A stretch of DNA of 64,000 nt, from assembly GCA_021792555.1 (NCBI GenBank), contig JAJYUL010000003.1, positions 1 through 64,000 of the forward strand. The letters run 5' to 3'. This DNA is from Pseudomonadota bacterium. Its GTDB lineage: Bacteria; Pseudomonadota; Gammaproteobacteria; Steroidobacterales; Steroidobacteraceae. The position numbers and the translations under genes were made by a program. Below, piece after piece: positions 24,954 through 32,272 of the stretch. Below the pieces are notes generated by a model. It was not told the origin of the DNA and did not search any database. It saw only the letters and a program-made list of their open reading frames with translations. The first letter of the stretch is position 1, and each line of letters begins with the position of its first letter.

Positions 24954-26015
24954 TCAGCCGGTGTCCTTCAGCCCCTCGAAGCGCGACTTGTTGATGGCCT
25001 TATTGTAGGCCTCGCGGGGGCTGACCTGCCCCTGATCGAGCAGCTGTTGAATCGCCGAGTCCATGGTGCGCATGCCGAACTGGGCGCCCGACTGCATGGT
25101 GTTCTCCAGCTGATCGAGCTTGCCCTGGCGGATCAGGCTCGCCGCCGCCGGGGTGTTGATCAGGATCTCGAGCGCCGCCACGCGCCCCTGTCGGTCGGCG
25201 CGCTGCAGCAGCTGCTGGGAGATCACCCCGCGCAGCGAGGTCGAGAGCATGGCGCGCACGTGCGATTGCTTGTCGGCCGGGAACACGTTGACCATGCGAT
25301 CGACGGTCTGGGCCGCGCCGTTGGTGTGCAGGGTGCCCATCACCAGAATGCCCGTCTCGGCCGCGGTCACCGCAATACTCATGGTCTCAAGATCGCGCAA
25401 CTCGCCGACCAGGATGACGTCCGGGTCTTCGCGCAGGGCCGAATGCAGCGCGGCGGCGAAGCTCGAGCTGTGCACGCCGATTTCCCGCTGGCTGATCAGG
25501 CAGTTCTTGCGCTGGTGCACGAACTCGATGGGGTCCTCGATGGTGAGGATGTGACCCTTCTCGCGCGTGTTGATGTCGTCGATCATCGCTGCGAGCGTGG
25601 TCGACTTGCCCGAGCCGGTTTTGCCCGTGACCAGCACCAGCCCGTTGTTGGCGCGGCAGAGCTGGGCGACCGAGGCCGGCATGGCGAGCTGCTCGAGCGT
25701 GAGCGCCGTGGAGGGGATGGCGCGGAACACCGCGCCCATGCCGTTCAGCTGCCGCAGCACGTTGACGCGAAAGCGGCCGCGCTCGGGGATGGTGTAGGCG
25801 AAGTCCGCCCCGTCGTGCGCCTCGAAGCGATCCGCGGCGATCTTCGGCATGATCTCGTAGAGCGCCTGTTTGACGAACTCCTGACCGAGCGGCTCCTTCT
25901 TCAGCGGCATCAGATCGCCGTACAGGCGGATGCGCGGGGGCTCCCCGGCGATGAAGTGCAGGTCCGAGCCGCGCTTCTGCAGGATCTCGAGCAGCAGAGA
26001 GTCGATGGTCGCCAC
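24954..26015 (-). CDS. PilT/PilU-family type IV pilus retraction ATPase (GTG start)
   Basis: Walker A GKTGSGKST; ITIEDPIEFVH; LREDPDVILVGELRDLET; GTLHTNGAAQTVDR. Confidence 0.92.
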   Translation of the reverse strand: MATIDSLLLEILQKRGSDLHFIAGEPPRIRLYGDLMPLKKEPLGQEFVKQALYEIMPKIAADRFEAHDGADFAYTIPERGRFRVNVLRQLNGMGAVFRAIPSTALTLEQLAMPASVAQLCRANNGLVLVTGKTGSGKSTTLAAMIDDINTREKGHILTIEDPIEFVHQRKNCLISQREIGVHSSSFAAALHSALREDPDVILVGELRDLETMSIAVTAAETGILVMGTLHTNGAAQTVDRMVNVFPADKQSHVRAMLSTSLRGVISQQLLQRADRQGRVAALEILINTPAAASLIRQGKLDQLENTMQSGAQFGMRTMDSAIQQLLDQGQVSPREAYNKAINKSRFEGLKDTG

Positions 26016-26028
26016 GGTTCGTCCGCCC

Positions 26029-27123
26029 TCACGCCCCGGCCATGTCGCTCTTCGGCAGCAGACCGCTGTCGCTGACGAATTTCTGGAAGGGGCGCTTGTC
26101 GCTCGCGTACACGTACGCCTCGTCGGGGTCGATCTCCCGCGCGTTGATCGCCGCGAGCAGCGCCTGATCGAGCAGCTGCATGCCGAGATCGCGTCCGGTC
26201 TGCACCAGGCTCGGGATCTGGAAGGTCTGCTCGGTCTGGATGAGCTTGGCGATCGCGCGAGTCATCATCATGATCTCGCAGACCGCGCGGCGACCGCGCG
26301 CATCGGGGGTTTTCACCAGCACTTGGGTGACCACCGCGAGCAGGCTCTGGGCGAGGAAGCTCTTGGTCTGCTCGCGCTGCTCGATCGGCAGCGCATCGAC
26401 GATGCGGTCGATGGTCTTGACCGCGCTGGTGGTGTGCAGTGTGCCGAGCACCAGGTGGCCGGTCTCCGCGGCGGTCATGGCCATGGAGATGGTCTCGGCA
26501 TCGCGCATCTCGCCCACCAGGATCACGTCCGGGTCCTCGCGCATCGCCGCGCGCACGCCCTCGGCGAAGCTCGGGATGTGGGTGCCGAGCTCGCGCTGGA
26601 TGACCTGGCTCATCTTGCTGCGGTGGACCACCTCGATCGGATCCTCGAGCGTGATGATGTTGAGTTTGCGCGACTGGTTCAGGTGGTCGATCATCGCTGC
26701 GAGCGTGGTCGACTTGCCGGTGCCGGTCGCGCCGGTGACCAGGATCATGCCCTGGTGGTAATCGCACAGCTTGGCGATCACCGGCGGCAGGCCCATGGTC
26801 GCGAGCGAGGGCACGGTGGTGGGGATGGTCCGGAAGGTCGCGCCAATGCCGGTCTCCTTGCGGAAGACGTTGACGCGGAAGCGCCCGCCCTCGGCCGACA
26901 CGTAGGAGAAGTCGAGGTCATGGCCGCCGCTGAAGCGCTCCGCCTGCGAGGGCGTGAGGATCTCGGTGATGTAGCCCTCGAGTTCCGGTCCGCGCAGCTC
27001 GCGGAATTTGATCGGCAGCAGATCGCCCTGCATGCGCAGCATCGGCGGCACGCCGACGGCCAGATGCACATCCGAGCAGCCTTGCTGCACGCCGAGCTTC
27101 AAGAACGCATCGATACGGGCCAA
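26029..27123 (-). CDS. PilT/PilU-family type IV pilus ATPase, PilU-like; probable TTG start at 27123 (ORF opens at 27195)
   Basis: Walker A GATGTGKST; ITLEDPIEVVH; MREDPDVILVGEMRDAET; GTLHTTSAVKTIDR; GGAG upstream of TTG. Confidence 0.88.
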   Translation of the reverse strand: MARIDAFLKLGVQQGCSDVHLAVGVPPMLRMQGDLLPIKFRELRGPELEGYITEILTPSQAERFSGGHDLDFSYVSAEGGRFRVNVFRKETGIGATFRTIPTTVPSLATMGLPPVIAKLCDYHQGMILVTGATGTGKSTTLAAMIDHLNQSRKLNIITLEDPIEVVHRSKMSQVIQRELGTHIPSFAEGVRAAMREDPDVILVGEMRDAETISMAMTAAETGHLVLGTLHTTSAVKTIDRIVDALPIEQREQTKSFLAQSLLAVVTQVLVKTPDARGRRAVCEIMMMTRAIAKLIQTEQTFQIPSLVQTGRDLGMQLLDQALLAAINAREIDPDEAYVYASDKRPFQKFVSDSGLLPKSDMAGA

Positions 27124-27254
27124 AGAGCACTCCAGGCCGGGGTCCGGTGCGCTACTTTCGCGCCGCTTCCCGCAGAAAATCAACCGTATGCGCATGAAAC
27201 CTTGAGGTGCGGCACGGTAGCGGCCGCCCGCCGCGCGGTCGGGCCCCGCTCGGG

Positions 27255-29642
27255 CTAGAGGAACTTCTCCAGCGCCCCGCGCACCTCCTCCATGGTCTGG
27301 AAGCGCTTGTTCTTGTCGACCGCCATGGCGCGCATGACCATCTCGGACAGTCCTGCCGGCAGCGCCGGATTGAGCTCCTGCGGCGCCCGGGCCTTGCCTT
27401 GCACGTGCTGGTACATCACCGACATGTGATCCCCGCGCGAGTACGGGGGGGTCCCGGTGAGCATCTCGTAGAGGATGACTCCGAGGGCGTAGATGTCGGC
27501 GCGCTCATCGACGCGCTTGCCGAGAATCTGCTCCGGCGCCATGTACTTCGGTGAGCCGATCACATAGCCGGTGCGCGTCAGCTGCGTCTCGCTCTCGCGC
27601 TGCGCGGCGGCCACGCCGAAATCGACGATCTTCAGCAGCGCCTCGTGGTTGATCAGCACGTTGGCGGGCTTCAGGTCGCGGTGCACGATGCCGGCCTGGT
27701 GGGCCACGGTCATGCCGGTGCAGATGTCGATGCCGAACTGCAGCGCGCGCTTGAGCTCCATCGGCTTCTCGCCGCTGACCTCGCTCGCGAGCGTGTGCGA
27801 GGGGAAATACTCCATCGAAATGGCGTAGTTGCCCTGGATATAGAGGAAGTCGTAGATGCGGATGACGTTGCGGTGCGTGATCTTGCGCGAGTAGCGCAGC
27901 TCGTGGACGAAGCGCTTCATCACTTCCTCGTCCGTCGCCACGTTCGGGTTCAGGAACTTCAGGATCAGCCGCTCGTCGACCACCGTGTCTTCCATCAGCA
28001 GCACGGTGCCGAAGGCGCCGCGGCCGATGCGCTCGACATATTTGTAGCGGCCCTCGATGACATCGCCCGCCCGGAGCGTCTGGATGTCGAGCCGATCCGC
28101 CGCCGCGCGCGCCGCGGCCGGGACCGCGGCGCCCGCCTCCGGCGGCTCGGGCAGCGCCTCGTGCGGGGGCTGTATCTGGCCGGCGGCGAGCGGGGCCGCG
28201 GCGGTCGCGCCCGAGAGCCGCCGCTCCAGCTCGGCCAGGGCCGCCTCGGCGGCGCGCGCGATGGTCTGGTCCGGCGCGCTCGTCTGGCTCTTCAGCTGCG
28301 TGCGCAGCGCATCGGCGCTCGCCGGGTCGGCGATCGTGGCGAGCGCCTGCATCGCCTCGATGCGCACTTCGCGCTCGGGCCGGGCGAGCAGCGGCGTCAG
28401 CGCGCCGGCGAGCTGCGCATCGCCGAGCTTGCCGAGGGCGCGGACCACCACCGGCAGAATCTTCGCATTGCCGTTGCGCAGCATCTCGAGCAGCCGCGGC
28501 ACCGCGCGCTTGCTGCCGATCTCCGCGAGCGCATCGACCGCCCGTTCGCTTACCCACCAGTCCGAGTCGCGCGTCGCCTGGATCAGCGAGTCCACCGCGC
28601 GCGGGTCCTTGGTCTGGTTGAGGATTTCGATCGCCGAGCGGCGGATGTCCTCGTCCTTGTCCCGCACCAGCTGCAGCACCGCATCGATGACGCGCGGCCC
28701 GCCGATCCGGCCGAGCGCATCGGCGGCGCGCGAGCGCACCCACCAGTCGCTGTCCTTCAGCGCCTCGAGCAGGTGCTTGACCGACTTCGCGTCGCCGACC
28801 TCGTTGAGCACTTCGACGGCCGCCCGGCGCGCGTTTTCGTTCTCGTCCTTCAGCACGCCGATCAGGTAGCGGATGGTCTCGGGGTGGTTCGCCTTGATCA
28901 CCACGTCGATGGCGCGGTTCTGCACGTCGATTTCCGGGTCCTTCAGCAGCTCGCAGACCCGCTCGACGTCGATCTGTCCTTCCATGCGCTGCAGCGCCGA
29001 GAGCGTCGCGCCGCGAATGAGCTTGTTCGGGTCGTTCAGCAGCCCCTGCAGCGCGGTGTGCACCTCCGGCAGGGGAAAGCGCGAGAGGATGTTGATGATG
29101 TGCACCCGGGCGATCGGGTCCTTGCCCTGCAGGCGCTGCATCAGCTCCGGCAGCGTCGCCGGGGTGGCCAGCTCCCCCACGATGCGAAACAGCGCCGCCT
29201 TTTCGTTCGGCTCCTGGTTGTAGGCGGCCGTGAGCAGATCGCGCAGCGAGAAGCGCGACTTGTGCGCCGCAATGACCTCGAGCAGCGCCGCCTTGGCGAT
29301 TCCCGGGGCCGAGAGCGCATCGAGCAGCAGCTGCGGGGGGTAGTTGCGGCTGCTGGTGAGGGCCCAGGCGATGCCGGCGATCACCCGCGGGCTGCCCTGC
29401 ACGAGCCCCTCGACGAACTGCGGGAAGGTCTTGGCGCTGACCAGGGCGCTCAGCACCTCGACGAAGGCGACGGTGGCGTTCTTGTCCGCATCGGGCAGGG
29501 AGGCGAGCACCGGGCCAATGACGCCCGGTCCCAGGTCTTTCAGCCGCGCGACGGCCTTCTGGGTCTCGGGGCTGGCCGGGTCCGTCGAGGACCGGATACC
29601 GGTGATCAACCGGTCGGCGCGCAAATTGGTCAAAAACGTCAT
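27255..29642 (-). CDS. HEAT-repeat protein fused to C-terminal Hanks-type Ser/Thr kinase
   Basis: N-terminal tandem HEAT/PBS-lyase-like repeats ([20 protein letters not shown]..); kinase [37 protein letters not shown]. Confidence 0.95.
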
Positions 29643-30977: not shown

Positions 30978-31117
30978 GGCGCCCTCTGCCGTCGGACCGG
31001 ACGAGGTGAGTTGCCTGGTGCGCGAGGCCCTGCGTGACCGCTCGCCGCAATGCCGGCGTGCGGCGGGGAGGCCCCCCTCGCGGCCGAGAGCGTGTTTTTC
31101 CAGAGTATCATCCGCGC

Positions 31118-32272
31118 ATGAGCATCAAATCTGACAACTGGATCCGTCGCATGGCGCGCGAGCACGGCATGATCGAGCCGTTCGCGCCCGAGCAGGTGCG
31201 TTACGTCGACGGCCAGAAGATCGTCTCGTACGGCACCTCGAGCTATGGCTACGATGTGCGCTGCGCCAACGAATTCAAGATTTTCACCAACATCAACTCG
31301 ACCATCGTCGATCCGAAGCGCTTTGACGAGAAGAGCTTCGTCGATCTCGCTGCCGACGTGTGCGTCATTCCGCCCAATTCCTTCGCGCTTGCGCGCACCG
31401 TGGAGTATTTCCGCATCCCGCGCAACGTGCTTACCGTGTGCCTGGGGAAATCGACATACGCGCGGTGTTTTCGCGGCGACACGCGCGTGGCGTTGCTGGA
31501 CGGCGAGGCGCCGACGCTGGAGGAGATGGCGAGGCGCCACGAGTCGGGCGAGAGCTTCTGGGGCTACAGCATTGGCCGCAACGGGCGGATCGTCGCTGCG
31601 CATCTGCAGCAGCCGCGCTACATCGGCCGGGATGCGTTGCTTCAGATCGAGCTCGACAACGGCGAGCGCATTCACGCCACTGCGGACCACCAGTTCATGC
31701 GCCGCGACGGCCGCATGGTCGAGGCGCACAGGTTGCGGCCGCAAGATGCGCTCATGCCGTTATACCGCTCTGTGATCGGCGGTTGCGAGGCCGTTTATCA
31801 GCCGCAGGACGGCCACACGTACCGCATGCCTCGCCCGGCCGACGAGCCGGAGCGCTCGCGCGGCGGATGCGCGCACCAGCCGCCGGCCCCGCGCCACATT
31901 GCGCAGGCCGTCGCGCGTTCGGGCGGCGCTGCGGCCTATCGCAATCACAAGATCGTCGCGATTCGCGAGCTGGCCGGCGACCATGACGTGTATTGCCTGA
32001 CCGTGCCCGAGGCCGGCAACTTCGCGCTCGAGGCGGGCGTGTTCGTCCACAATTGCGGCATCATCGTGAACGTGACGCCGCTTGAGCCGGAGTGGGAAGG
32101 GCACGTCACGCTCGAGTTCTCCAACACCACGCCGTTGCCGGCGAAGATCTACGCCAACGAGGGCGTGGCCCAGATGCTGTTCTTCGAGTCGGACGAGGTC
32201 TGCTCGACCTCCTACAAGGACCGCGGCGGCAAGTACCAGGGCCAGCGCGGCGTGACGCTGCCGAAGACCTGA
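31118..32272 (+). CDS. dcd: dCTP deaminase precursor interrupted by an in-frame intein
   Basis: N-extein [31 protein letters not shown] (31118..31465) and C-extein [44 protein letters not shown] (32054..32272) join to a 188-aa Dcd. Confidence 0.96.
31466..32053 (+). mobile_element. intein in Dcd, 196 aa, Cys1 / terminal His-Asn / Cys+1; no intact homing endonuclease recognised
   Basis: Block [14 protein letters not shown]; block [18 protein letters not shown]; block [16 protein letters not shown]; block G GVFVHN followed by Cys. Confidence 0.95.

What the first reader, a model, noticed from the sequence alone, without database searches (positions are those of the whole stretch)
24954..29642. 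HEAT-repeat Ser/Thr kinase co-oriented with two PilT/PilU-family ATPases
Kinase (27255..29642) lies directly upstream of a PilU-like ATPase (26029..27123) and a PilT-like ATPase (24954..26015), all on the minus strand between metG and apbC. The kinase keeps GRGAFGTV, the catalytic Lys, HRDLKPAN and DFG. Its ~480-aa HEAT array could be a docking or mechanosensory scaffold. The arrangement suggests phospho-control of pilus retraction; no pilus assembly genes are in the window.
Basis: partly seen in the sequence, partly recalled or inferred. Interest (0 to 1): 0.6.

Follow-up and report, generated by a model that had tools for sequence, protein, structure and literature searches.

The report
HEAT-kinase operon with extra PilT motors
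A signalling protein kinase is encoded, in a long-conserved gene trio, with an extra pair of pilus-retraction-type motor proteins, and in many relatives with phospho-threonine readers and a phosphatase as well, which points to an undescribed phosphorylation system tied to type IV pilus motors.

Summary
Window 24954-29642(-) encodes a 795-aa kinase (HEAT superhelix, linker, intact RD kinase domain) followed by two PilT-family ATPases. In 232 gammaproteobacterial genomes the three genes occur together in 29 genomes (21 families) and in none of the other 203. They are adjacent in 28 of the 29; in the other they sit on separate contigs. Outside Steroidobacterales metG/apbC/dcd are gone but the trio stays, often with overlapping start/stop codons, so this is not passive linkage. 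Canonical pilT-pilU lies elsewhere. In the tree both window ATPases form their own clades on the PilT side; neither is PilU. In 18 of 23 testable non-Steroidobacterales loci an FHA gene (tandem FHA, or cyclase-FHA) directly follows; a PP2C phosphatase (7 loci) and an FHA-GAF-HD protein (6) lie upstream. HEAT residues 256-380 are more conserved than the catalytic domain. Best reading: a kinase/phosphatase/FHA module that controls, or is driven by, a dedicated second pair of PilT-type motors. Phosphorylation, substrates and direction of signalling are untested. My paper searches found no description. New variant of a known kind (compare T6SS PpkA-PppA-Fha, archaellum Arn).

The parts
27255..29642 (-). 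Ser/Thr kinase gene, 795 aa: HEAT superhelix + disordered linker + Hanks-type RD kinase domain
   Evidence: orthologues in 29 of 232 class genomes
28197..29642 (-). HEAT-repeat superhelix, residues 1-482 (about 15 helix pairs)
   Evidence: Pfam HEAT_2; AlphaFold2 model, pLDDT mostly above 90
28503..28877 (-). Hyper-conserved HEAT patch, residues 256-380, with two DxDWW motifs (28740-28754 and 28554-28568)
   Evidence: 33 fully conserved positions, higher mean conservation than the catalytic domain; two DxDWW in 42 of 42 orthologues
28068..28196 (-). Ala/Pro-rich linker, residues 483-525, mostly disordered
   Evidence: pLDDT below 50 at 480-515; least conserved segment
27258..28067 (-). Kinase domain, residues 526-795, PknB-like, catalytic residues intact
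   Evidence: Pkinase 1e-49; invariant K562, E581, HRD, DFG, T689; Foldseek best hits M. tuberculosis PknB and S. aureus Stk1
26029..27123 (-).
   Evidence: TIGR01420; own clade with support 99, on the PilT side of the tree; Walker A/B, Asp and His boxes intact
24954..26015 (-). PilT-family ATPase B (here 'triadT'), 353 aa, GTG start, 13 bp after ATPase A
   Evidence: TIGR01420; own clade with support 99, on the PilT side; motifs intact

Best explanation
The three genes are one operon-encoded functional unit: a soluble Ser/Thr kinase plus a dedicated second pair of PilT-type hexameric ATPases that works beside the cell's ordinary PilT/PilU. The HEAT superhelix, mainly its invariant 256-380 face, docks the kinase on a fixed partner, most simply one of the ATPases or the pilus base. 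The kinase phosphorylates threonines in this complex. FHA proteins read the phosphothreonine and a PP2C phosphatase resets it; both are encoded beside the trio in many lineages, and homologues are unlinked in the window's own genome. The result is adjustment of type IV pilus retraction or motor exchange, with links to cyclic nucleotide and, through the HD-domain protein, probably c-di-GMP signalling. Shown: gene order, co-inheritance, intact catalytic motifs, own clades, linked FHA/PP2C genes, canonical pilus genes elsewhere. Inferred: docking, phosphorylation, substrates, and effect on retraction.
For: Co-inheritance: kinase orthologues in 29 of 232 class genomes; ATPase A and ATPase B orthologues in the same genomes and no others (28 above threshold; the 29th, G218, has a partial ATPase A gene at a contig end). 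Adjacent in 28 of 29; in G205 the kinase sits apart, yet all three are kept. Distant loci lost metG/apbC/dcd, and kinase-ATPase gaps are -4 to -1 in many. Distance matrices correlate, r = 0.84-0.93. Catalytic residues are kept in the kinase and both ATPases. FHA directly downstream in 18 of 23 testable non-Steroidobacterales loci, PP2C upstream in 7, FHA-GAF-HD in 6. The linked tandem-FHA protein is most similar in the PDB to GarA, a mycobacterial kinase substrate, and carries EPTMF[IVL][KR]AE in 12 of 13, in a disordered inter-domain linker. Hyper-conserved HEAT patch. The window genome also has pilA-B-C-D and canonical pilT-pilU.
Against: No biochemical or genetic data. No pilus assembly genes lie next to any trio that I read, so the link to a pilus rests on the ATPase family. 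FHA/PP2C genes are not linked to the trio in the window or its order; the window genome's PP2C-FHA pair (C73) and cyclase-FHA (C7) belong to more widespread groups and may serve other kinases, of which the genome has four. ATPase A lacks the PilT-type AIRNLIRE motif. In the window the kinase-ATPase gap is 131 bp, so a separate promoter is possible; none was found by consensus.
Confidence: 0.58

Rival explanations
1. Reverse direction: the two PilT-type ATPases act as sensors of motor or pilus state and switch the kinase; the output is FHA-coupled signalling (cyclase-FHA, FHA-GAF-HD, GarA-like FHA protein), not control of retraction.
For: The genes next to the trio are signalling outputs, not pilus parts: cyclase-FHA, FHA-GAF-HD, tandem FHA. 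The canonical PilT-PilU pair is kept for retraction. A 2024 review notes retraction ATPases as transducers of surface contact (PMC11656802).
Against: Both ATPases keep full catalytic motifs. Gene order alone cannot give direction.
Confidence: 0.22
2. The ATPase pair serves another type IV pilus-like machine or a non-pilus task, and the kinase regulates that.
For: No pilin or platform gene beside any trio read; ATPase A lacks AIRNLIRE; GspE and a further T2SSE-family protein exist in the genome.
Against: Both ATPases pass the PilT/PilU cut-off and branch beside canonical PilT; the window genome and 16 of 16 trio genomes examined also hold canonical pilT-pilU.
Confidence: 0.15
3. Passive linkage: neighbours without a functional tie.
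For: Fixed metG-apbC context within Steroidobacterales.
Against: Trio kept in 21 families after its flanks changed, with start/stop overlaps; never found apart in presence/absence.
Confidence: 0.02

Closest known systems
T6SS threonine phosphorylation pathway (PpkA kinase - PppA phosphatase - Fha)
   Same: Ser/Thr kinase, PP2C phosphatase and FHA protein encoded with a cell-envelope nanomachine's genes; post-translational control (PMC6082577, PMC3953482)
   Different: Here the machine genes are PilT-family ATPases, not T6SS; the kinase is HEAT-fused; FHA/PP2C genes are linked only in some lineages
Archaellum regulatory network of Sulfolobus (ArnA FHA, ArnB, kinases ArnC/ArnD, PP2A)
   Same: Hanks-type kinases, an FHA protein and a phosphatase control a type IV pilus-like motility structure (PMC5300886); ArnA appears among PDB matches of the linked FHA protein
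   Different: Archaeal; acts largely on archaellum expression; no HEAT kinase and no operon with retraction-type ATPases
Canonical PilT-PilU retraction ATPases
   Same: Same ATPase family, intact Walker/Asp/His motifs
   Different: Window pair forms two separate clades on the PilT side, additional to canonical pilT-pilU elsewhere in the genome
Neisseria PilT2 and Geobacter PilT1-4 (extra PilT paralogues)
   Same: Extra PilT paralogues beside the main motor; Neisseria PilT2 modulates retraction (PMC6762196, PMC5065972)
   Different: No linked kinase is described in the passages read; phylogenetic relation to the window pair not tested
Synechocystis SpkA
   Same: Hanks-type kinase affecting pilus formation and motility (cited in PMC6213207)
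   Different: Acts on pilA expression; not encoded with PilT-type ATPases as far as I know; domain make-up not compared here
Mycobacterial PknB-GarA
   Same: PknB is the top structural match of the kinase domain and GarA the top PDB match of the linked FHA protein
   Different: Metabolic control; phosphoacceptor threonines lie N-terminal to the FHA domain (recalled), here the conserved EPTMF lies between two FHA-like domains

Membership tests
Hanks-type Ser/Thr protein kinase | G-loop, VAIK Lys, alpha-C Glu, HRD, DFG, APE present | tested here: met
   invariant or nearly invariant in 42 orthologues; Pkinase 1e-49
Hanks-type Ser/Thr protein kinase | protein kinase activity on Ser/Thr | not testable with these tools
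   needs an in vitro assay
PilT/PilU family (TIGR01420) | score above curated cut-off | tested here: met
   417 and 445 bits against 319
PilU proper | groups with canonical PilU | tested here: not met
   ATPase A is in its own clade on the PilT side; canonical PilU is on the other side of a branch with support 100
PilT proper | groups inside canonical PilT; AIRNLIRE motif | tested here: not met
   both ATPases are separate clades outside canonical PilT; AIRNLIRE reads AIAKLIQT and AAASLIRQ
PilT proper | drives pilus retraction | not testable with these tools
   needs twitching or retraction assay
T6SS TPP (PpkA/PppA/Fha) | kinase, PP2C and FHA genes in one locus | tested here: inconclusive
   all three kinds within the fetched flanks in 7 loci (L161, L168, L171, L177, L178, L179, L183), not in the window's order
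T6SS TPP (PpkA/PppA/Fha) | located in a T6SS gene cluster | not tested
   no search for T6SS genes was made; conserved neighbours found were signalling genes and ATPases

The most novel reading that the evidence does not exclude
A previously undescribed kinase/FHA/phosphatase system in which a second, dedicated pair of PilT-type ATPases is the mechanical sensor: motor state is passed to the HEAT-docked kinase, and FHA-coupled cyclase and HD-domain enzymes turn it into second-messenger signals, so that pilus mechanics is read by eukaryote-like phosphorylation.
Probability: 0.2. Interest if true: 0.88.

Novelty: new variant of a known kind. Interest (0 to 1): 0.68.

Why it matters
Known control of type IV pilus motors runs through c-di-GMP, Pil-Chp/cAMP and protein inhibitors; the 2024 review consulted has no mention of FHA proteins and, in the passages I read, no Ser/Thr kinase (PMC11656802). 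A kinase that has co-travelled with two extra PilT-type motors through 21 families of Gammaproteobacteria, with FHA and PP2C genes beside it in many, would be a new layer of motor control or motor sensing. It gives a function-linked home to PilT paralogues that are usually annotated simply as PilT/PilU. It is directly testable in cultured hosts such as Povalibacter uvarum, Steroidobacter gossypii and Peristeroidobacter species.

Tried and rejected
Passive linkage (rejected). 'PilU' label for ATPase A (rejected by tree). Idea that the window pair replaces canonical PilT/PilU (rejected: canonical pair on C30; 16 of 16 trio genomes examined have it). C36 T2SSE gene as PilB: the ORFs beside it look like GspD and a GspF-type protein, so it is the T2SS ATPase; PilB is on C70. 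G196 kinase hit (28% identity, no trio) is not an orthologue. The window genome's C73 FHA looked like the trio FHA, but genomes with a linked FHA also carry a C73-like second copy, so it is probably a paralogue. Phylum-wide draw of 358 genomes found the kinase and ATPase A only in the window's genome; the draw seems to favour well-sampled taxa, so this bounds rarity, not absence. Paper searches combining HEAT repeat, kinase and pilT/pilU or type IV pili gave nothing.
Full report
OBSERVATION. The three genes are at the stated coordinates on the minus strand. The kinase has 795 aa; Pfam finds HEAT_2 and Pkinase. The two ATPases pass the curated PilT/PilU cut-off. Gaps are 131 bp (kinase to ATPase A) and 13 bp (A to B). 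No sigma-70-like promoter or minus-strand terminator was found between them (consensus matches only).

CANONICAL PILUS GENES ARE ELSEWHERE. The window lies in a 3.5-Mb, 84-contig, 99% complete assembly. Contig C30 carries a canonical pilT (77-86% identical to canonical PilT of the 16 trio genomes examined), a pilU and a third PilU-like gene beside genes that read as yggS, proC and yggT. Contig C70 carries a pilin, pilB, pilC and pilD. The window pair is therefore an extra pair.

CONSERVATION. In the window's order (Steroidobacterales), nearly every locus that reaches far enough shows apbC, kinase, ATPase A, ATPase B and mostly metG. In an even draw of 232 genomes of the class, 30 hold a kinase match at E<=1e-90, 28 hold ATPase A at E<=1e-110 and the same 28 hold ATPase B above a gap in scores (365 bits and up against 359 and down for canonical PilT; the lowest of the 28 is a gene cut by a contig end, the next is 398). 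The two extra kinase genomes are G218, whose contig ends inside ATPase A, and G196, a 28%-identity non-orthologue. So 29 of 29 trio genomes (21 families), and 0 of the other 203. The genes are adjacent in 28; in G205 the kinase lies on another contig, with sequence on both sides showing a true split. Outside the order, metG, apbC and dcd are not next to the trio, while kinase-ATPase A gaps shrink to about -4 to +60 bp. Distance matrices of the three proteins correlate at r = 0.87 (kinase-A), 0.93 (kinase-B) and 0.84 (A-B) over 28 loci; part of this is shared species history. A phylum-wide draw of 358 genomes found kinase and ATPase A only in the window's genome.

PHYLOGENY OF THE ATPASES. In a 114-row tree, ATPase A (31 rows) and ATPase B (31 rows) are each one side of a single branch (support 99). 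Both lie with canonical PilT, including P. aeruginosa PilT (PDB 3jvu), and apart from canonical PilU and the third PilU-like group. Walker A, Walker B, Asp box and His box are kept in both. The PilT motif AIRNLIRE is changed in both, more in A.

KINASE. Catalytic residues are invariant or nearly so in 42 orthologues of 38-100% identity. The model (42-sequence alignment, mean pLDDT 88.6) shows a continuous HEAT superhelix 2-482, a disordered linker 480-515 and a kinase domain closest to PknB and Stk1 in the PDB. The relative placement of the two parts is not reliable (pTM 0.57). HEAT residues 256-380 have mean conservation 3.39 bits against 3.33 and 3.07 for the kinase lobes, with 33 fully conserved positions and two DxDWW motifs in 42 of 42. 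A structural repeat alone does not need this; a fixed binding surface is the simplest explanation (inference).

LINKED SIGNALLING GENES. Among non-Steroidobacterales loci with sequence after the trio, 18 of 23 have an FHA gene directly downstream: a tandem-FHA protein in 11 loci, two copies in L161 and L183, or a class III nucleotide cyclase-FHA protein. Upstream and divergent lie a PP2C phosphatase (7 loci) and an FHA-GAF-HD protein (6 loci). That the HD domain is an HD-GYP c-di-GMP phosphodiesterase is inferred from its HD_5 match. The tandem-FHA protein resembles GarA best among solved structures; 12 of 13 copies carry EPTMF[IVL][KR]AE in a predicted disordered linker between two beta-rich domains. 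The likeness to the ETTSVF-type phosphoacceptor of GarA/OdhI is from memory. In the window genome an unlinked PP2C-FHA gene pair (C73) and a cyclase-FHA gene (C7) exist; they belong to wider groups present in 70 and 53 of 232 genomes at loose thresholds and may not serve this kinase.

EXPLANATION. The data show a co-inherited unit of kinase and two PilT-type ATPases, and in many lineages its embedding in FHA/PP2C signalling. The inferred steps are HEAT docking, threonine phosphorylation, FHA reading, PP2C reset and effect on retraction. Direction is open: the kinase may set the motors, or the motors may set the kinase. I put 0.58 on control of pilus motors, 0.22 on motor-to-kinase sensing, 0.15 on a non-pilus role and 0.02 on no tie.

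COMPARISON. It works like the T6SS TPP pathway and the archaellum Arn network (PMC6082577, PMC3953482, PMC5300886), but I do not file it as a member of either: the machine genes differ, and T6SS membership was not tested beyond the neighbours read. PilT paralogues are known in Neisseria and Geobacter (PMC6762196, PMC5065972). The paper searches found no kinase encoded with PilT-type ATPases; the library lacks most subscription papers, so absence is weak evidence.

VERDICT. A real, conserved and apparently undescribed module; mechanism plausible but unproved.

Noticed in passing
window 31034-32272 (+): dCTP deaminase gene interrupted by a 196-aa intein at GKSTYAR^C...HN^CGI; 14 relatives carry 191-376-aa inteins at the same site and 29 have none.
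   Followed up: partly
L124 6700-10313: Canonical pilT and pilU are followed by a third PilU-like ATPase; the third gene also occurs in several other families.
   Followed up: partly
L192 6650-8192 (G000 C73): PP2C phosphatase directly followed by a tandem-FHA-like protein with EKTMVIQP motif, not linked to a kinase.
   Followed up: partly
L195 2558-3475 (G000 C7): Class III cyclase-FHA protein, 46% identical to a protein directly downstream of the trio in another lineage (L159).
   Followed up: partly
L174 and L175 (G205): Only genome in the draw in which kinase and ATPase pair are on separate contigs with unrelated neighbours.
   Followed up: partly
L184 (G196): Divergent HEAT-kinase (28-33% identity) without trio ATPases.
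   Followed up: no
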